Virus record (IMG/VR): IMGVR_UViG_3300017605_000446
Coordinates: 1 to 43,026 of that record
Length of the DNA stretch: 43,026 nt
Origin: a virus
Reading direction: 5' to 3' (one strand)
Shown here: in pieces, positions 8,571 to 39,911 of the stretch
Layout: every line of letters starts with the position of its first letter
Numbering within the stretch: position 1 is the stretch's first letter
The notes under the pieces: generated by a model
Databases searched by the model: none
What the model was told of the DNA's origin: nothing
Seen by the model: the letters and a program-made list of their open reading frames with translations, nothing else
Translations under genes and position numbers: made by a program

Positions 8571-8742
8571 GCATCACCATGACTCCGAAGAACGGGCCGC
8601 CGAAGTTGGCGAACATGTACCGCCGGGAGAAGAACGGACGCCAGTGAGGCAGGGGCCGATAGAACACCCGCACCACGAAGCCGGGAGGGTAGAACTCCAG
8701 CATCCGGCGCTCCGGATCCGGCCAGCCGTGCAGCAGCCTCAT
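8563..8742 (-). CDS. hypothetical aromatic-rich small protein
   Basis: 59 aa, start at MRLLHGWPDPERR (8742), ATGA overlap with the NinG-like gene. Very rich in Phe, Tyr, Pro and Arg (EFYPPGFVVRVFYRPLPHW), with a short hydrophobic C-terminus (FANFGGPFFGVMVM) that could insert in or lie on a membrane. Unknown function; shorter than 60 codons. Confidence 0.55.
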   Translation of the reverse strand: MRLLHGWPDPERRMLEFYPPGFVVRVFYRPLPHWRPFFSRRYMFANFGGPFFGVMVMRG

Positions 8743-9236
8743 AGCCCGTACTTCTCCGCGTAGAGCATTTCGTACTCCGCGCCGCCCACCTTCAGCGCCG
8801 CAATCAGTTCCTCCAGCTCCGGCGCTCTCCATTGCCGGAACTCCTTCGCCTTCGCATGGAGGCGGTTGAACTCCTCGATTCCATAGCGGTTAATGACCTC
8901 CAGGGCGTAGACCGCGCCATTGCCTCCTAGCCAGCAGTTACAGTGGCCGCACTGGCTGTGGACGTTCTTGGGGTCGTAGCGGACGCTTGGCCTACCATCG
9001 CTGGGGATCATGTGGCCCGCCTGCCAGTTCTTGCCTACAAGGCCAACGGCGGGGCAGGAGATGCAGGCGTCCCCGTCCCTCGCCTTGACGTAGGCGGCGA
9101 ACAGCTTCCACAGCTTCCGCTCCAGGGTCGGTACGCGGTTCTTGCTGGCCCGGCGTGGCCGCTTGGACCTACGCAGAGACCCGGAACGCTTCAGAGGCTT
9201 CGGCGCGCGCACTCGCTTGACGGGCTTGGGGATCAT
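8739..9236 (-). CDS. ninG: NinG/Rap-like recombination protein
   Basis: 165 aa. Basic N-terminus (about 1-40, RVRAPKPLKRSGSLRRSKRP), then LWKLFAAYVKARDGDACISC, WQAGHMIPSDGRPSVRYDPK, NVHSQCGHCNCWLGGNGAVY and LEVINRYGIEEFNRL: the NinG block order with its CxxC / GH / CxxCN metal site, a His-Me-finger-like arrangement. In lambda, NinG (Rap) is a junction-recognising nuclease that aids phage recombination. Here it joins a RecE/RecT pair at 13-14.7 kb, forming a complete phage recombination set. The start at 9236 overlaps the previous gene by 4 nt. Confidence 0.88.
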   Translation of the reverse strand: MIPKPVKRVRAPKPLKRSGSLRRSKRPRRASKNRVPTLERKLWKLFAAYVKARDGDACISCPAVGLVGKNWQAGHMIPSDGRPSVRYDPKNVHSQCGHCNCWLGGNGAVYALEVINRYGIEEFNRLHAKAKEFRQWRAPELEELIAALKVGGAEYEMLYAEKYGL

Positions 9237-9859
9237 GCCGTGGCCTCCAGTGCCAACGCTCGCTGCTTCGACAGACTCCGCAGAAGAGAGCCGTGCCGAT
9301 CCAACATCGCCCGCGGGAATCTTGACCAGCCCGAGCCGTCCACGGAATCACAGCCTAGCGCCGCCGCGTAGATCAGCCGTCGCTTCGTGTTCACCCGCCC
9401 CATGTGCAGCCACTTCCCGCGAAGCCGAGCCTCCTGGAGGATGTGGGCGGCGTCCGCGCCTAGCTTCCAGCGCGTCGTGCCGCCGATGAACACCGCGTCG
9501 ATGTCCGGCCAGGGTGTCGTGTCAGGCGTCAGGCCGTCCTGAGCTACGAGAGCCACGGGATAGCCGTACTCCCTGATCCGCGGTTCCCACTCACGGAAGA
9601 GTTCCGCCGTCGCCGCGTGGTCGCCCACCACGTCAGGTGCTGTCACGAAGAGACACCTATCCTTCGCCCACCAGTGCTTCGCCAGCATCGCCGTGAACTT
9701 GTCCTCCTCGAATCCGGAGAACGCCCCATTGTCCCCGGCCCATTTGCAGTATTCCGGCAGGGAGTTCCCGGCCTTCGGGACGGCTAGGACGCCGAAGATG
9801 TCCGGCCGTTCCTGTACGAGCGGGCCAAACTGCGCGGTCCCTCCCGAAACGAGCAACAT
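9233..9859 (-). CDS. TGT/DpdA-like transglycosylase (putative DNA 7-deazaguanine insertion)
   Basis: 208 aa, start ATG 9859 (TGATG overlap). Motifs: KWAGDNGAFSGF (D43), CLFVTAPDVVGDHAAT (D76, D80), PVALVAQDGL (D108), DAVFIGGTTRWKLG, GKWLHMGRVNTKRRL and GCDSVDGSGW (D171, D174). These match the tRNA-guanine transglycosylase TIM-barrel plan, with the two Asp positions used as general base and nucleophile. The compact length and VAQDGL / FIGG..WKLG signatures resemble the queuine-transferase-like/DpdA group, whose phage members exchange guanine in DNA for preQ0-type bases as restriction protection. Biosynthesis genes (folE, queD, queE, queC) are absent here, so the base would come from the host. 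A tRNA-directed or different role remains possible. Confidence 0.72.
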   Translation of the reverse strand: MLLVSGGTAQFGPLVQERPDIFGVLAVPKAGNSLPEYCKWAGDNGAFSGFEEDKFTAMLAKHWWAKDRCLFVTAPDVVGDHAATAELFREWEPRIREYGYPVALVAQDGLTPDTTPWPDIDAVFIGGTTRWKLGADAAHILQEARLRGKWLHMGRVNTKRRLIYAAALGCDSVDGSGWSRFPRAMLDRHGSLLRSLSKQRALALEATA

Positions 9860-10119
9860 CAAGCGGCCAACTTGAGCCGTGCAGCTCGCGCCCGAACCGT
9901 CGCACAGCGGGCTTCCGAGTGCCGCGCGTATGACTCTCGCGCCAGCCTCTTGGCCCGTTCCTTGAAAGTCTTGTCGCTGTGATAGAGCCGCATCGAACGG
10001 CGGCGCAAATACGGCCGGCGCTTCACGCGGATGCAGGCTCGACACTCAGAACGGTGCGGGCCGAACGCCTTCAGGGGCAGTTCCCGACCGCACAACCCCG
10101 CGCACCACTTCAGGCCCAC
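9859..10119 (-). CDS. zinc-ribbon, Arg-rich small protein
   Basis: 86 aa from GTG 10119, whose codon overlaps the preceding gene end. N-terminal WCAGLCGRELPLKAFGPH with SECRACI forms a four-Cys site typical of small phage zinc ribbons; the rest is a basic helix (RRRSMRLYHSDKTFKERAKR). Probably nucleic-acid binding. It lies between the deoxyribosyltransferase-like gene and the transglycosylase-like gene and is coupled to both. Confidence 0.68.
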   Translation of the reverse strand: MGLKWCAGLCGRELPLKAFGPHRSECRACIRVKRRPYLRRRSMRLYHSDKTFKERAKRLARESYARHSEARCATVRARAARLKLAA

Positions 10120-10505
10120 GCGCGCAGCCTTTCGATGGCCTCTCCGAGCGTCGGAACGAGCGCAGAGGCATGGAACCGGAGCCACGGAGAGACGCGGGCT
10201 TGACCGCAGATCACCAAGACCTGCTTGCCCTGGTAGTACGAGTAGAACGCCTCCATGCCAGTGCCCCAGCTCGGCTTATCCGCGGCCACGAGCACGATGT
10301 CCGAGTCCTGGATGTCCTTCAGGTCCCCCGCCACGATCTCGGCGTAACACTCGTCCTCTCGGCCCCGATAGTCCCGGCGCATCGGGTCCAGGAACTCGAA
10401 CGTTCCGGCCAGTTCCGATTTGACCGTCTCGCGCCAGTCCTTCGCTTCCGAGTCGGAACAGCCATTGATGGCTCCGCACAGATAGACCGTCCTCCGCTCG
10501 CTCAC
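10110..10505 (-). CDS. nucleoside 2-deoxyribosyltransferase-like protein
   Basis: 131 aa. VYLCGAINGCSDSEAKDW at the N-terminus, FEFLDPMRRDYRGRE, VAGDLKDIQDSDIVLV (D61, D67, D69) and SWGTGMEAFYSYYQGKQVL with E85 as the expected nucleophile: the layout of the NDT Rossmann-like family, which swaps bases between deoxynucleosides or hydrolyses them. Known members act in nucleotide salvage. Its closeness to a TGT/DpdA-like gene is notable, since both enzyme types exchange bases on (deoxy)ribose. Close relatives of the family include plain hydrolases, so the exact reaction is uncertain. Confidence 0.8.
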   Translation of the reverse strand: MSERRTVYLCGAINGCSDSEAKDWRETVKSELAGTFEFLDPMRRDYRGREDECYAEIVAGDLKDIQDSDIVLVAADKPSWGTGMEAFYSYYQGKQVLVICGQARVSPWLRFHASALVPTLGEAIERLRAWA

Positions 10506-12782: not shown

Positions 12783-13006
12783 CAGAACGGGATGTCGTCC
12801 TCGCGGACGTCCTCCGTGTCGAACTCCTCGCATACCAGGGTCACGACGCTGCGCGAGGAAACCGTGCGCACGACGAGGAACCGCTGATCTGGCGTCGCGC
12901 GCGCGAGGCGCTCGGCCTCTTTCTCGGCGGCGTCCAGTGTCAGGTGTTTCGCCGTCGGGTGATTCGACGCCCCGTGCTCGCGGATCACGTAGTAAAAGGG
13001 CTGCAT
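12782..13006 (-). CDS. hypothetical small protein after RecT
   Basis: 74 aa, start MQPFYYVIREHG at 13006, overlapping the RecT-like stop (TGATG). Two-part fold suggested: a beta strand start (FYYVIRE), a helix (LDAAEKEAERLARATPDQRF) and strands (LVVRTVSSRSVVTLVCEEFD), ending acidic (EDVREDDIPF). The acidic DDIPF tail is like the C-terminal tips of SSB-type proteins, but the rest does not look like SSB. Function unknown. Confidence 0.62.
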   Translation of the reverse strand: MQPFYYVIREHGASNHPTAKHLTLDAAEKEAERLARATPDQRFLVVRTVSSRSVVTLVCEEFDTEDVREDDIPF

Positions 13007-13821
13007 CACGCGACCTTCGGGCACGGCTCGGACGGCTTGTGGTCGCCCCCGCACTCGGGGCACGCTGGCGCCACGTCGATAACGGCGGACGCCGCTGGCG
13101 GGGGCTCGGCCAGGAGCGGGTCGGGCGACGTCGGCGGAGGCAGGCTCGCGCGGACGGCCACGTCCTCCCGCGGCGGGTAGTCCTGCGCTTCCTCCGCGAT
13201 CGGGAATCCGCCAAGCACCTCGGACCAGTGGTCCTTCGCGTGGAAGCCCACGGCGCGCCACATGAGCTGCCGGTCGGGGTACGTCACCCACGGCGTCGGC
13301 TCGCCCTTCCGCCCCGTCTTCCCCCAGAGGCCGGCCGTCTTCGCCGCCGCGACGCCGAACTCCGTCCGCTCCTCGCGCGTGGCCCCGACACGGAGCGAGA
13401 CGCAGACGCCCTTCATGGCGTCGCCGGTCCCCTCGGACCAGTGGCGGATGTACTTGCACCGCGGGTCCGCGCGGATGAGGCCGACGGCCGCCTGCCCCCG
13501 CCACGACGTGTTGCCGTTGATGACCACGACGGACTGAAGCGAGTGCATCGGCGTGAGCCCGGCCTCCATGCCCGTCTGGATGGCTAGGGCGACTTGGCCG
13601 ACCGACGTCATCCCCTTCGGGGCCACGGCCCCGGCCAGCGCCGTCTGAGCGAACCGCCAGAGCTCGGCGAACGAGCGAAGCTGGACGCCCCGGTCGGACA
13701 TGACCATCGGCGACTTCCCCTTCGTCTCCACCAGAGCGGGCGGCTCCGCCTTCGCGGCCTCCACCATCGCCGCGGCGTTCGCCTCCTCGGTCACGGTCGC
13801 GTCCGAAACCTCTTCACTCAT
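13006..13821 (-). CDS. recT: RecT-like single-strand annealing protein
   Basis: 271 aa. Core blocks: RSFAELWRFAQTALAGAVAP, SVGQVALAIQTGMEAGLTPM, HSLQSVVVINGNTSWRGQAA, GLIRADPRCKYIRHWSEG, GVAAAKTAGLWGKTGR and PWVTYPDRQLMWRAVGF. These match the RecT family (paired helices, 'G..al.sl..i.vi.G', terminal 'W.typ..m...RA'). It anneals complementary single strands made by the partner exonuclease, driving phage recombination. The C-terminus is Pro-rich and ends in a four-Cys/His knuckle (CPECGGDHKPSEPCP), an optional add-on. Two ATGs overlap the exonuclease stop (13824 and 13821); the second has the better RBS distance. Confidence 0.85.
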   Translation of the reverse strand: MSEEVSDATVTEEANAAAMVEAAKAEPPALVETKGKSPMVMSDRGVQLRSFAELWRFAQTALAGAVAPKGMTSVGQVALAIQTGMEAGLTPMHSLQSVVVINGNTSWRGQAAVGLIRADPRCKYIRHWSEGTGDAMKGVCVSLRVGATREERTEFGVAAAKTAGLWGKTGRKGEPTPWVTYPDRQLMWRAVGFHAKDHWSEVLGGFPIAEEAQDYPPREDVAVRASLPPPTSPDPLLAEPPPAASAVIDVAPACPECGGDHKPSEPCPKVA

Positions 13822-14672
13822 CATTCCCCCTGTGTCGGACGGAAGGCCCACGGCGGCAGGCTCACGTAGTCGATGCCGTCCGGGTAGCCCGGCCAGCGGC
13901 CCGACTTCACGCACTCGGCGTACTCGGTCAGGTGCTTCTGGTAGTCGTCGCGCCCGAGCTGTAGCGCGTCCTCTTCCATCTCGTAGACCGCCGCGCAGTA
14001 CGGCGGCTCCTTCTCGATGGCGATGAAGATGAACTTGCGCTCGTGCGGCGCGAGGGCGTTGAGCCCGTCGAGATACAGCGCCGCCTGCTGGTGGTAATGG
14101 AAGGTGTGGACGTCCTTGGAGAAGGACGAGCGGGCCGCGTTCCGCGTCGTCTTCACGTCCACGATGCACGGCCAGCCCGCCATCGACGTCAGCCGGTCCA
14201 GCCGCGCCTTGACGCGGAGCCCGGTCCCCTCGTCCACCCAGAGCGCGGACACCTCGTTGAGCCCCTGGCCGCGCAGCAGTTCGGCCGCTGTCGGGTGCGC
14301 CCAGACGCCGGCACACATGGCGATGCAGAGGTCGTATTCGTCCTTCGTGATGATGGAGTGTCCGCCGTGCTCGGCCTGGAACTCCTGCCACTCCAGCTTC
14401 CCGGCCGTCGTCCGCTTGTCGATCTTCGGCGCCGCCACGAACTCGGCCTCGAACCGGGCGGGCTCGAGGATGGCGACGTGCGCGGCCCACCCGAGGGCCT
14501 GGGCCTCCGTCTGGTCGGCGGGGCTCACGATGGCCTCGCGCGCGTGGGCCGCTGTCCGGTTGAAGAACCGGAGCTTCGAGTGATTGATGGCGTCCCACCG
14601 CGCGTACGTGTCGTATGGCACGTTCCGGTGCAGGCCGACCGAAACGGAAGGCACGACCACTTCGGCGCTCAT
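13821..14672 (-). CDS. RecE/YqaJ-like exonuclease (PD-(D/E)XK)
   Basis: 283 aa. Motifs in order: GWAAHVAILEPARFEAEFV (G..H..ILEP with H65), E140, RVKARLDRL (D159), CIVDVKTTRNAA (D172, K174: DxK), and HTFHYHQQAALYLDGL (QxxxY around Q195-Y200). This is the catalytic order of RecE/exodeoxyribonuclease VIII, which resects double-strand ends 5' to 3' for the annealing partner RecT directly downstream. The start ATG at 14672 has GGGAGGG 7 nt upstream; the ATG at 14678 is too close to that RBS. Confidence 0.88.
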   Translation of the reverse strand: MSAEVVVPSVSVGLHRNVPYDTYARWDAINHSKLRFFNRTAAHAREAIVSPADQTEAQALGWAAHVAILEPARFEAEFVAAPKIDKRTTAGKLEWQEFQAEHGGHSIITKDEYDLCIAMCAGVWAHPTAAELLRGQGLNEVSALWVDEGTGLRVKARLDRLTSMAGWPCIVDVKTTRNAARSSFSKDVHTFHYHQQAALYLDGLNALAPHERKFIFIAIEKEPPYCAAVYEMEEDALQLGRDDYQKHLTEYAECVKSGRWPGYPDGIDYVSLPPWAFRPTQGE

Positions 14673-14842
14673 CGGCATCCCTCCCGGTTACACTGACCGT
14701 CCTCGTCCAGCGGCAGGCCGCAGCCGGGGCAGAGCTGCTTCGCGAGCCGCGCCATAGCCTCGTCCGTCTTGCGTACCGTCTCTCCCGTCACCGGGAAGTT
14801 GTGGAGGCCGGGCAGGCTGTAGAACCAGGCGCGCGCGTTCAC
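14669..14842 (-). CDS. zinc-ribbon miniprotein
   Basis: 57 aa from GTG 14842 (GTGA overlap), below common length cutoffs. C-terminal LCPGCGLPLDEDGQCNREGC has four Cys (CxxC...CxxxxC), a compact zinc knuckle; the N-terminal half is helical (FYSLPGLHNFPVTGETVRK). The stop overlaps the exonuclease start. Function unknown. Confidence 0.58.
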   Translation of the reverse strand: MNARAWFYSLPGLHNFPVTGETVRKTDEAMARLAKQLCPGCGLPLDEDGQCNREGCR

Positions 14843-18131: not shown

Positions 18132-18466
18132 GCCTTGCTCCTCAAGCTATCCAGCTTCGTCAGGTCCGGCATCGTCTCCGTGACCGGGAATGGCGGCTCG
18201 GGCGGGTACAGAAAACGCCAGTGCGTGACGCGCTCATCGTCGGCATCGAGCCATAGGCCGTGTGCATCCATCCATCCCGGCGCGTGCATTTGTGGACCGA
18301 GTCCACGGTCCACGCTCGCCCCCGGGCCAATCCAGCGCGCTACGATCACCATGCCGTAACCGTCGTCGTCGTTCCCGAGCGCGGGTAGATAGGCCCACAC
18401 GGGCCCGTTGTGGTTCGGCGGCCGGTCATCCGGATATCGGTACCACTCGTCTCCTGACTCGATCAC
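18128..18466 (-). CDS. hypothetical protein, second gene of the integrase-tail series
   Basis: 112 aa from GTG 18466 (GTGA overlap with the integrase stop). WYRYPDDRPPNHNGPVWAYL, VIVARWIGPGASVDRGLG, GLWLDADDERVTHWRFLYPP: an aromatic-rich small beta/alpha protein of a type common as phage DUF proteins ('..VthW...p.PP'). The final ten residues, TKLDSLRSKA, are a copy of the integrase C-terminus, encoded by an exact 30 bp repeat. Function unknown. Confidence 0.7.
   Translation of the reverse strand: MIESGDEWYRYPDDRPPNHNGPVWAYLPALGNDDDGYGMVIVARWIGPGASVDRGLGPQMHAPGWMDAHGLWLDADDERVTHWRFLYPPEPPFPVTETMPDLTKLDSLRSKA
18134..18163 (-). repeat. 30 bp direct repeat, copy 1 (gene-junction cassette end)
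   Basis: Identical to 18469-18498. Read on the minus strand it encodes LTKLDSLRSK at the end of a gene and contains GAGGAG, placed 6 nt before the next start codon. Spacing between copies is 335 bp, exactly one gene. Confidence 0.9.
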
Positions 18467-19551
18467 GGCTTGCTCCTCAAGCTATCCAGCTTCGTCAGCC
18501 CCTCCGCGATCATCTTCTCGTCGACGATCGCGTACCGCTTGAACACGCTGGCCGTCTTCCATCCCCCGATGGCCATGGCCACCGACTGCGAGATCCCGGC
18601 CCGGATCATGTTCCTCGCCGCGCTCCGCCGCATGTCGTGGACGAGCCGCCCCGGCAGTCCAGCCCGCTTGCACGCCCCCGCCCAGGCCCCGAGGAACGCC
18701 AGCACGGGACGCCCGCCACGATGGAACACCCACGGCACGATCCGCCCCTCTCGCTTCTCCAGGCTGTCCGTGTTCGTGCGCTGCACCTCGATCACTTCCT
18801 TCAGCGCCGGCAGCGCCGCATACGGGATAGTACGCGCCTCGTCGTTCTTCGATTCCTCGATCCGGATGACACCCGCCCTCATGTCCACCATGCGCCACTG
18901 CAGCGACGTGGCCTCTGTCTTCCGCCAGCCCGTCCAGTACAGGAACGTCACCAGCGGCTGCAGGTCCGTGGGCAGCTTCAGCATGATGGCCCGGAACTGC
19001 TCCGGCTCGAGGAACCCGGCCCGCGGCCTGTCCTCCCTGAGCAGGGAGAACGACGGCAGCACGGACAGCCTACCAAGGGCCACGGCCAGCCTGAGCCCGC
19101 GGCGGAGCTGGGCAAGCTCCCGGTTGATGGTCCCGTTCCGCACGCCCTCACTTCTCCGCGCGGCCTTGTACGAGGCGATGGAGGAAGCCGACACCATGCG
19201 CGCGATGGGCCCATCCCCGAAATGCTGCTTCAGGTGCTGGAAGGCGCCCGTGACGTTGCGGCTGCTGCGCCGCTTGTTCTCCACGTAGTCGTTCGCCACC
19301 AGGTGCTCGAGGTCGTCGATGGTCGTCTTCTGCGTGGCTGGGTCACGGGCTTCGCCGCGGTCGGCCGCCGCCACGCGCGCGCGCAGCAGCTTCTCGGCCT
19401 CGCTCTTGATGGTCGTCTCGGAGGACTCGCGGATGCGCCGTCGTGCCCCGCGCGGGCCCACGCGGTAGGAGATCCACCACACGGCCTGCTCCACGCCGTT
19501 CGTCTTGGGGCGCCATACGGTGCCCGCTCCGTGCGGCCGTCGCTTCGTCAC
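18463..19551 (-). CDS. int: tyrosine recombinase integrase
   Basis: 362 aa. N-terminal AP2-like strand region (GAGTVWRPKTNGVEQAVWWI), core-binding helices (about 75-165), and a catalytic domain with TGWRKTEATSLQW (R210), EESKNDEARTIP (K235), VHDMRRSAARNM (H305, R308), GGWKTASVF (W331) and nucleophile Y340 in FKRYAIV. All six catalytic positions are present, so the enzyme should be active: it inserts the phage at a host tRNA 3' end and excises it. It starts at GTG 19551 (GTGA). It ends LTKLDSLRSKP, a tail copied on the next two genes. Confidence 0.95.
   Translation of the reverse strand: MTKRRPHGAGTVWRPKTNGVEQAVWWISYRVGPRGARRRIRESSETTIKSEAEKLLRARVAAADRGEARDPATQKTTIDDLEHLVANDYVENKRRSSRNVTGAFQHLKQHFGDGPIARMVSASSIASYKAARRSEGVRNGTINRELAQLRRGLRLAVALGRLSVLPSFSLLREDRPRAGFLEPEQFRAIMLKLPTDLQPLVTFLYWTGWRKTEATSLQWRMVDMRAGVIRIEESKNDEARTIPYAALPALKEVIEVQRTNTDSLEKREGRIVPWVFHRGGRPVLAFLGAWAGACKRAGLPGRLVHDMRRSAARNMIRAGISQSVAMAIGGWKTASVFKRYAIVDEKMIAEGLTKLDSLRSKP
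18469..18498 (-). repeat. 30 bp direct repeat, copy 2 (integrase 3' end)
   Basis: Exact copy of 18134-18163. It forms the last ten integrase codons and the RBS of the following gene, so it is probably the ancestral copy: the sequence fits the natural C-terminal helix of integrases. Confidence 0.9.
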
Positions 19552-37994: not shown

Positions 37995-39911
37995 CTACGC
38001 CTTCCGGATGCCGGTGATGGCCCCGTTCGCGTCCCGCTCCACCTTCAGCGGGGCAGGCGACGGCACGTTGACCGTGACCGGAGCATCGACGCGCACGAGG
38101 GGCGTGGGGACGTTCACGTTGATGTCGGGCGTCATCTGCGGCGGCACGTTCACGTCCCCGCCTCGGAAGGTGATCGCCGCCGGAGGCACGGGCGGGACGT
38201 GATTGTGCGTCTCCACGGTGACGTTCGGCGGGGCCTGCTCGGGCACGTTAACGGTCACGTTCACGGTGGCCGGGGCCGTCCTCGCCCTCAACTCCTCCGG
38301 CTGCAGGGCCAGAATCTGCTCGGCCAAGTCCCCGCCGCGGGTCGTCTCCCACCGCGACACCAGGGCGTCCGCGCGCGTCTCCAGATCCTTCGCTGGCAGG
38401 GCCAGAAGATCATCCTTGGACCGCTCCACGTACCGCGTCGCAAGGCCCGCCGACACCTCTTCAGCGTCCCCGTCAAGGCCACGGCACGCCAGGCTCAGCC
38501 TCACCGCAGGCACCAGGAACCCGCGCAGCACCACGACCTCGTCCCGGTAGAACTCGTCGGCCCAGGTCGAGAAGGCGGCCGGGCCCTTCTTCGCCGCCCG
38601 CCGCGCCGCGCTGGCCTCGCGCCGGACGAACCGAGACACCACGTCGACGAGGTTGGCACGGTCGGCGGCCAAGGTCCGCGCGTTAGCAGGCGGCGGCCCC
38701 GGCGGCTTCGGGTCGGACACGGGCGGCATCGGCTCCTTCGGCTTCGGCTTGGGCAGGTTCTCCTTCTTCGCGATCTGCTCCGCATCCAGCACGCCCATGT
38801 CGAAGTACGTCTTGTACGACGTACCGCGGGCGGCCCAGAACATCCTGAGCAGGGCGTTGCGATCGTGCTCCACGTACTGCGTGGCCCGCATCGGCTTCGC
38901 GATGAGTTTCCGCCGGCACTCCTGCTCGATCCGGATGAGCCACACGTCGAGCGTGCTCGAAAGGTAGTCCTGCTCGGACTCGGTCAGGTTCCCGCCCGGC
39001 CGCTCCCCCATCTTGTGCTTCAGCTTGTGGGGCGGGATGTTCCACCAGCGGGCAACCTCGAGGATCTGGTCCTCGCGGCTCTCCGTCATCTGCGACTTCT
39101 GGGGCTCGGTCCCCATGACCGACGCCTTCATCCCCTCTTCGAGGACGGCCGTGGAATGCGCGCGGTCGGGCCCCTGCTTGAGGCGATCCCATCCGACCTT
39201 CAGCCGCTCCGCCGCGCCAGGGCTCAGCGTCTTCGGGTGCTCGAGCAGAACCCCCGGCCACGCCCCGTTCCCGAAGAAGCTGGCGGCGAACTTCTCCAGG
39301 GCCAGCGACAGTCCCAGCGACTGCTTCGCCTTCTCCACCACGGGGTAGCCGCTCATCCCGTCCCCGCCCATGCCGTGGATGTCGAAGATGTCGTCCGGAT
39401 GAATCGACACCTGCCCGCGCCAGAGGTAGTACCGGCCGGCGTACGGGTTCCCGTCGATGACGGTCGGCCCGTACTTCGGCACGCACTGCCCCGGCAGGAG
39501 CGGCCACAGCCGGATCGGACGGAGCGCCTTGTCGTACTCGATCTCGGCGTACCCGCCGCCGAACAGCGCCGCGGCCACGATCGTCTTCCAGAAGTCCAGC
39601 TCGTTGATGCGCGCCTCGTCGTTCGGGTCGTCGAGGATTCGCGCCGTGGGCCCCGTGTCGATGCGCTCCCGAGAATCGTCCTCGAGACGCCGGTACAGGT
39701 GCCGCGGCAGGCGGGCCACGTCGGACGAGATGAGGTCGACCGCGTTCCACACCGCCGACACCTGGAAGGCCGTGTCCGCGTTGACGGTCGGGCCCGCGGC
39801 CGACGACCCATTCAGGAGCACGCCGGGGAAGTCGGCCCAGGTGATCTGCCGCACCTCCGGCTCCCGCCGCCGCCAGGAATAGTCCGCGTCCAGGCCGAGC
39901 GAGAGCATCAT
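37995..39911 (-). CDS. HK97-type portal protein with Val/Asn/Pro tail
   Basis: 638 aa. Core: VSAVWNAVDLISSDVARLPR, HLYRRLEDDSRERIDTGPTA, ILDDPNDEARINELDFWKTI, AAALFGGGYAEIEYDKALRP, IRLWPLLPGQ, DIFDIHGMGGDGMSGYPVVE and the long clip/wing region with IPPHKLKHKMGERPGGNLTE and SEQDYLSSTLDVWLIRIEQE: an intact HK97 portal, a dodecameric DNA-entry ring. Residues about 410-540 are an Ala/Arg-rich helical extension. The last ~85 residues repeat VNVP/VNV units (ATVNVTVNVPEQAPP, VNVPPQMTPDINVNVP, VTVNVPSPAPLKVERDANG). It overlaps the glycosyltransferase stop. Confidence 0.92.
   Translation of the reverse strand: MMLSLGLDADYSWRRREPEVRQITWADFPGVLLNGSSAAGPTVNADTAFQVSAVWNAVDLISSDVARLPRHLYRRLEDDSRERIDTGPTARILDDPNDEARINELDFWKTIVAAALFGGGYAEIEYDKALRPIRLWPLLPGQCVPKYGPTVIDGNPYAGRYYLWRGQVSIHPDDIFDIHGMGGDGMSGYPVVEKAKQSLGLSLALEKFAASFFGNGAWPGVLLEHPKTLSPGAAERLKVGWDRLKQGPDRAHSTAVLEEGMKASVMGTEPQKSQMTESREDQILEVARWWNIPPHKLKHKMGERPGGNLTESEQDYLSSTLDVWLIRIEQECRRKLIAKPMRATQYVEHDRNALLRMFWAARGTSYKTYFDMGVLDAEQIAKKENLPKPKPKEPMPPVSDPKPPGPPPANARTLAADRANLVDVVSRFVRREASAARRAAKKGPAAFSTWADEFYRDEVVVLRGFLVPAVRLSLACRGLDGDAEEVSAGLATRYVERSKDDLLALPAKDLETRADALVSRWETTRGGDLAEQILALQPEELRARTAPATVNVTVNVPEQAPPNVTVETHNHVPPVPPAAITFRGGDVNVPPQMTPDINVNVPTPLVRVDAPVTVNVPSPAPLKVERDANGAITGIRKA

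What the first reader, a model, noticed from the sequence alone, without database searches (positions are those of the whole stretch)
9233..10505. TGT/DpdA-like and deoxyribosyltransferase-like genes in one coupled set
Genes 9233-9859, 9859-10119 and 10110-10505 overlap each other. One resembles enzymes that swap guanine in nucleic acid, another swaps bases on deoxynucleosides, and a zinc ribbon lies between. This could be a small DNA-modification set that uses host preQ0-type bases and protects phage DNA from restriction. No base-synthesis genes are in the window.
Basis: partly seen in the sequence, partly recalled or inferred. Interest (0 to 1): 0.72.

Follow-up and report, generated by a model that had tools for sequence, protein, structure and literature searches.

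The report
Phage mini-DpdA with nucleotide glycosylase
This temperate phage carries a compact enzyme of the family that swaps guanine in nucleic acids for a queuosine-type base, next to an enzyme that cuts or moves bases on DNA building blocks; the same pairing recurs in many other phages, so it is probably a small kit for modifying phage DNA with a base taken from the host rather than made by the phage.

Summary
Three overlapping minus-strand genes encode P0003 (10110-10505), a small Cys-containing protein (9859-10119) and P0001 (9233-9859). P0001 is a compact (208 aa) TGT/DpdA-superfamily protein: confident model (pLDDT 92.6), 200/208 residues aligned on solved TGTs (Z about 14), TGT active-site motifs in order. 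P0003 has the nucleoside-deoxyribosyltransferase fold; its profile is nearest to the dNMP N-hydrolase DNPH1, and key residues match DmtZ, a phage dNMP hydrolase/phosphodeoxyribosyltransferase.

The pairing is not chance. In IMG/VR, 38 of 54 non-redundant P0003 relatives have a TGT/DpdA-like gene in the locus, 37 within 460 nt, all same strand. P0001's close relatives lie instead beside a queuosine-precursor-type transporter (31 of 61 clusters) or queC/queE (9 of 61). The window lacks a transporter and QueC/QueD/QueE/FolE, so the base would come from the host.

Best reading: a salvage-type 7-deazaguanine cassette; P0001 swaps guanine in DNA, P0003 acts on the same base at dNMP level. Substrate, polymer (DNA or tRNA) and restriction protection are untested. 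The zinc ribbon is not a conserved part. New variant of a known kind.

The parts
10110..10505 (-). P0003, 131 aa, nucleoside-deoxyribosyltransferase-superfamily enzyme of DNPH1/DmtZ type (predicted dNMP N-glycosidase or phosphodeoxyribosyltransferase); Y8, D61, E85 catalytic, S79 and S106 at phosphate-site positions, W108 lid
   Evidence: Pfam PF15891/PF05014 over cut-off; model pLDDT 96; profile nearest to DNPH1; fold matches; DmtZ comparison
9859..10119 (-). Small basic protein with Cys pairs (zinc-ribbon-like), 86 aa; lies between the two enzymes, no evidence that it belongs to the system
   Evidence: ORF and sequence; weak PHROG endonuclease match 0.004; no counterpart in related loci
9233..9859 (-). 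P0001, 208 aa, compact TGT/DpdA-superfamily protein; invariant D43, D76, Q107, G126-G127, H152, D174
   Evidence: phrog_15826 2e-51; model pLDDT 92.6; TGT Z about 14 over 200 residues; phage queuine tRNA-ribosyltransferases among viral models; family alignments; iterated DpdA HMM 1.5e-16

Best explanation
A salvage-type 7-deazaguanine modification cassette of a temperate phage. P0001 is a stripped-down TGT/DpdA barrel that most likely uses its aspartates (D174 as nucleophile) to exchange guanine in phage DNA for a 7-deazaguanine base such as preQ0 (class and motifs shown; reaction and polymer inferred). The phage has no genes to make such a base, so the base comes from the host. P0003 is a DNPH1/DmtZ-type enzyme that breaks, and perhaps re-forms, the glycosidic bond of a purine deoxynucleoside monophosphate; most likely it feeds the exchange by freeing 7-deazaguanine base from nucleotides, or by moving it on and off deoxyribose phosphate (fold, catalytic residues and recurrent pairing shown; substrate and direction inferred). 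In relatives of P0001 the partner gene is instead a queuosine-precursor-type transporter or QueC, which would also supply the base.
For: P0001 fold and motifs and HMM link to DpdA. P0003 fold, profile and residues. P0001 family beside a Vut_1/queuosine-precursor-type transporter in 31 and queC/queE in 9 of 61 clusters, nearly all adjacent and same strand. P0003 family: 38 of 54 clusters with a TGT/DpdA-like gene, 37 within 460 nt, all same strand; P0003 homologues inside or next to preQ0/DpdA gene clusters in phages Erebus, RHph_X3_2 and ZHS. At least six label changes for each of the QUE and NDT partner types forced by starred branches of a quick tree.
Against: No activity has been measured for any member of either subfamily used here. 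23 of 80 P0003-type loci have no TGT-like gene, and 21 of 61 P0001-type clusters have no recognised partner, including the window's nearest relatives. PDB Foldseek ranks generic TIM barrels above TGT, and pyruvate kinase ties with TGT in the second aligner. Phage Orion with a lone DpdA has unmodified DNA (PMC6884629). The host, and whether it makes preQ0, is unknown.
Confidence: 0.55

Rival explanations
1. Nucleotide-pool route: P0003, like DmtZ, transfers deoxyribose 5-phosphate from a normal dNMP to a free 7-deazaguanine base, making 7-deaza-dGMP that is phosphorylated and used by the polymerase; P0001 completes or edits the modification.
For: DmtZ precedent in phages (PMC12884076); P0003 shares the triad positions, a Pro 20 residues before the catalytic Asp/Asn (called transferase-type in that paper) and the lid Trp; Asn14 in place of DmtZ Asp12 could suit a 6-oxo purine.
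Against: A base-exchange enzyme next door makes a polymerase route redundant; P0003 keeps Asp61 as in hydrolases where DmtZ has Asn; profile nearest to the hydrolase DNPH1.
Confidence: 0.2
2. P0001 modifies tRNA rather than DNA, changing host or phage translation.
For: It is a TGT-superfamily protein with TGT-like motifs; relatives are annotated as tRNA-guanine transglycosylase.
Against: It is 208 aa, much shorter than tRNA TGT (375 aa), and has no CxC..C zinc-site segment like the C-terminal part of E. coli TGT; the nearest characterised relatives by HMM are phage DpdAs.
Confidence: 0.12
3. P0003 is a general nucleotide-pool enzyme (sanitiser or purine salvage) and lies beside P0001 without working on the same base.
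For: DNPH1 acts as a pool sanitiser (PMC10603095); 23 of 80 P0003-type loci have no TGT-like gene, and in four of these an IMPDH/GMP-reductase-like ORF lies within 1.8 kb.
Against: Pairing with TGT/DpdA-like genes in 38 of 54 clusters, both gene orders, same strand; location inside que operons.
Confidence: 0.15
4. Chance neighbours in a packed early operon.
For: The whole operon is tightly packed; a third gene lies between the two; the window's nearest P0001 relatives (L014, L015, L026) have no recognised partner.
Against: Adjacency of the two families recurs in many unrelated loci in both gene orders, and the tree requires at least six changes of the NDT label on starred branches.
Confidence: 0.1

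Closest known systems
Phage DpdA (7-deazaguanine DNA transglycosylase; CAjan, 9g, Rosebush; PMC6884629)
   Same: TGT-superfamily relation, conserved Asp motifs, recurrent linkage to 7-deazaguanine genes; lone-DpdA phages without preQ0 genes are a known group
   Different: P0001 is about 200 aa against about 300 aa, only remotely similar in sequence; three phages carry both a canonical DpdA and a P0001-type gene (Sonali, phiG7, R29Z)
Bacterial tRNA-guanine transglycosylase (TGT)
   Same: Barrel fold and order of active-site motifs
   Different: P0001 lacks the zinc-binding C-terminal segment; no direct sequence match
DmtZ of Gordonia phage Ghobes (PMC12884076)
   Same: NDT-superfamily phage enzyme with DNPH1-like fold; same positions for catalytic Tyr and Glu, Pro and lid Trp
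   Different: About 13% identity to P0003; Asn77 versus Asp61, Asp12 versus Asn14; lies in a 2-aminoadenine phage, not a 7-deazaguanine one
DNPH1/Rcl dNMP N-hydrolase
   Same: Best profile match of the P0003 family (1e-5), catalytic triad and first phosphate serine
   Different: P0003 has Pro41 and Trp108, and Asn14 where rat DNPH1 has Arg19
Halorubrum virus HRTV-29 (DpdA plus NDT-type gene, no preQ0 genes; PMC8651126)
   Same: Same pair of functions without base-synthesis genes, in an archaeal virus
   Different: Its two genes lie about 9 kb apart and its DpdA is longer (243 aa)

Membership tests
TGT/DpdA superfamily | TGT-type barrel fold | tested here: met
   Model pLDDT 92.6; TGT Z about 14 with 200/208 aligned, tied with pyruvate kinase; phage queuine tRNA-ribosyltransferases among viral models
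TGT/DpdA superfamily | Conserved active-site aspartates in the order DxGxF, D, GG, nucleophile D | tested here: met
   D43, D76, G126 and D174 invariant across P0001 relatives and canonical DpdAs
TGT/DpdA superfamily | Sequence homology to DpdA by profile | tested here: met
   Iterated HMM from six DpdAs reaches P0001 at 1.5e-16; hhalign 1.3e-4
Phage DpdA as a DNA-modifying enzyme | Inserts 7-deazaguanine into DNA | not testable with these tools
   Needs mass spectrometry or an enzyme assay
Named DpdA subfamilies (DpdA1-4, bDpdA) | Clustering with one named subfamily | not tested
   The defining 2023 paper is not held; subfamily names are from memory
tRNA TGT | C-terminal zinc-binding segment | tested here: not met
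   P0001 has no such Cys cluster; the E. coli TGT sequence has one
NDT superfamily | Fold plus catalytic Tyr, Asp/Asn and Glu | tested here: met
   Pfam over cut-off, model and matches, Y8/D61/E85 invariant in A7
dNMP-acting branch (DNPH1/DmtZ) | Phosphate-binding serine residues and acceptance of dNMP | tested here: inconclusive
   S79 aligns with the DNPH1 serine and S106 is invariant near the second one; substrate not tested
preQ0-synthesising phage group (FolE, QueD, QueE, QueC) | Presence of the synthesis genes | tested here: not met
   None found in the 43 kb record; the record may be a fragment

The most novel reading that the evidence does not exclude
P0003 and its relatives are enzymes that attach or detach 7-deazaguanine bases at the deoxynucleoside-monophosphate level (a 7-deazaguanine counterpart of DmtZ), and together with the mini-DpdA they form a synthesis-free route by which phages recycle host-derived 7-deazaguanine into their genomes.
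Probability: 0.3. Interest if true: 0.82.

Novelty: new variant of a known kind. Interest (0 to 1): 0.63.

Why it matters
Hutinet et al. (PMC6884629) left open how phages with a lone DpdA obtain their base, saw no correlation of YhhQ with any phage group, and could not rule out undetected 2'-deoxyribosyltransferases. The recurrent cassettes found here (mini-DpdA with a transporter, with QueC, or with a DNPH1/DmtZ-type enzyme) make that question testable. They mark a large family (at least 584 matching stretches in IMG/VR) as a likely salvage branch of 7-deazaguanine modification, and point to a candidate new enzyme activity on modified nucleotides.

Tried and rejected
Zinc ribbon as a conserved third component: no counterpart in related loci. 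P0003 as a classical nucleoside 2'-deoxyribosyltransferase: the profile prefers dNMP enzymes, although the fold search ranks a 2'-deoxyribosyltransferase first. Known defence system: no PADLOC hit for the three proteins. A hidden transporter, QueC, QueD, QueE or FolE in the window: none found. Direct sequence link of P0001 to solved TGTs or to E. coli TGT: none, so the link rests on the model, the motifs and DpdA intermediates. A scan with P0003 alone found no relatives and a seven-sequence alignment was too divergent to search with; four closer sequences worked. Bacterial genomes: 12 relatives of P0003, one beside a DpdA-like gene. The paper defining the later DpdA subfamilies is not held. 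A portal-protein search gave no clear host.

Full report
OBSERVATION. The next gene (8739-9236, NinG/Rap-type HNH nuclease) overlaps too, so the overlaps are a feature of the operon. The record is a 43 kb linear IMG/VR virus with an integrase at 18463-19551, exonuclease VIII- and RecT-type genes at 13006-14678 and a portal protein at 37995-39911, so it is most likely a temperate tailed phage.

WHAT P0001 IS. Pfam gives no significant match. PHROG 15826 (unknown function) matches at 2e-51, and actinophage homologues at 44-48% identity are annotated 'DpdA-like tRNA-guanine transglycosylase'. Invariant residues are D43 (DNGxF), D76 (PDxVGD), Q107 and G109, G126-G127, H152, GRVN and D174. They follow the order of the TDSGGF, FDE, IQG, VGG, LMG and MFDC motifs of E. 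coli TGT; this is a correspondence of motif order, not a residue superposition. With canonical DpdAs added, D43, D76, G126, H152, S172 and D174 stay invariant. An HMM from six phage DpdAs, iterated through intermediates, reaches P0001 at 1.5e-16; hhalign of the two families gives 1.3e-4. The AlphaFold model is confident (pLDDT 92.6). Foldseek against PDB lists generic TIM barrels first, with TGT at rank 50. The second aligner places TGT entries in most of the top 50 rows (about 200/208 residues, Z about 14, 3.6 A), tied with pyruvate kinase. Among viral models several named hits are phage queuine tRNA-ribosyltransferases. P0001 lacks the zinc-binding tail of tRNA TGT. I conclude that P0001 is a compact TGT/DpdA-superfamily enzyme (about 0.9).

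WHAT P0003 IS. It passes two NDT Pfam cut-offs. Its model (pLDDT 96) matches deoxyribosyltransferases, YtoQ, MilB and DNPH1. A 23-sequence profile prefers DNPH1, a dNMP N-hydrolase (1e-5), to NDTs (0.03). Y8, D61 and E85, invariant in the family, match the DNPH1 triad (human Y24, D80, E104; PMC10603095). S79 aligns with a phosphate-binding serine; S106 lies where the second is expected, but that part of DNPH1 was not in the alignment. [quoted passage not shown] residues checked). P0003 shares its Tyr and Glu positions, a Pro 20 residues before the catalytic Asp/Asn, and the lid Trp (W108/W124). The Pro match rests on spacing; the automatic alignment pairs a different Pro of DmtZ. P0003 has Asn14 at the place of DmtZ Asp12, which might suit a guanine-type base (inference).

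THE LINK IS NOT CHANCE. (a) P0001 relatives: in ReqiPine5, Aoka and GreaseLightnin the neighbouring membrane protein is Vut_1, which also matches the queuosine-precursor transporter models, below their equivalog cut-offs. Over 61 clusters (80% identity), 31 have this transporter, overlapping or within 340 nt on the same strand; 8 have QueC and 1 QueE. (b) P0003 relatives: the nearest named phages carry it inside 7-deazaguanine operons (Erebus: QueE-x-QueC-QueD-P0003-FolE...DpdA; RHph_X3_2: QueE-x-P0003-QueC-QueD-FolE) or close to one (ZHS: QueC-FolE-DpdA...P0003). HRTV-29 has DpdA and the P0003-type gene but no preQ0 genes (PMC8651126). Of 54 IMG/VR clusters, 38 have a TGT/DpdA-like gene in the locus, 37 of them within 460 nt, all same strand, in both gene orders. 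(c) On a quick tree of 74 P0001-type proteins, partner types change repeatedly; starred branches force at least six changes for each of the QUE and NDT labels. A change may be a gain or a loss. None of the nine NDT-linked rows also has the transporter (0.003 under independence, ignoring relatedness), although both occur together beside DpdA-like genes in seven P0003 loci. The partners look like alternative ways to supply or handle the base. The sets are the best-scoring 80 loci of each scan, not random samples.

WHAT THE WINDOW LACKS. No transporter, QueC, QueD, QueE or FolE. If the system works, the base must come from the host, which is unknown.

MECHANISM. Shown: superfamily membership of both proteins, catalytic residues, recurrent pairing. 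Inferred: P0001 swaps guanine for a 7-deazaguanine base in DNA; P0003 cleaves or re-forms the glycosidic bond of the related dNMP to provide the base. Not known: the base, whether P0003 hydrolyses or transfers, whether tRNA is a target, whether restriction is blocked. Phages 7-11 and MED16, with DpdA but no preQ0 genes, have low-level dADG (PMC6884629, PMC8306585); Orion has none, and MED16 DNA is still cut by most enzymes tested, so protection is not a given.

NOVELTY. DpdA-type modification is known, and the P0001 family has been called DpdA-like in actinophages. In the papers I could search, systematic pairing with a queuosine-precursor transporter or with a DNPH1/DmtZ-type enzyme is not described: the 2019 survey saw no correlation for YhhQ (PMC6884629) and the DmtZ paper does not mention 7-deazaguanine. 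The 2023 paper on DpdA subfamilies could not be read. I rate it a new variant of a known kind.

Noticed in passing
window 8739-9236 (-): NinG/Rap-type HNH nuclease directly downstream, overlapping P0001 by 4 nt; weak PtuB resemblance in PADLOC.
   Followed up: no
window 13006-14678 (-) and 18463-19551 (-): Exonuclease VIII-type and RecT-type recombination genes and a phage integrase.
   Followed up: no
L009 8001-8425 (Escherichia phage phiG7; SHIN8 likewise): The P0001-type gene is split over two frames in both Seuratvirus-like genomes, beside an intact canonical DpdA: decay or a programmed frameshift.
   Followed up: no
L108, L109, L129, L130: P0003-type genes without a TGT-like neighbour have an IMPDH/GMP-reductase-like ORF within 1.8 kb (identified by eye).
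   Followed up: no
L010 (Erythrobacter phage R6L), L011 (ReqiPine5), L093, L043: A PAPS-reductase-family gene lies near the P0001-type gene in four loci.
   Followed up: no
L173, and HRTV-29 gp32-gp33 (L180 14251-15376): A YaaA-annotated gene sits directly before dpdA in HRTV-29; in L173 the DpdA-like domain is the C-terminal part of a 719-residue open frame.
   Followed up: no
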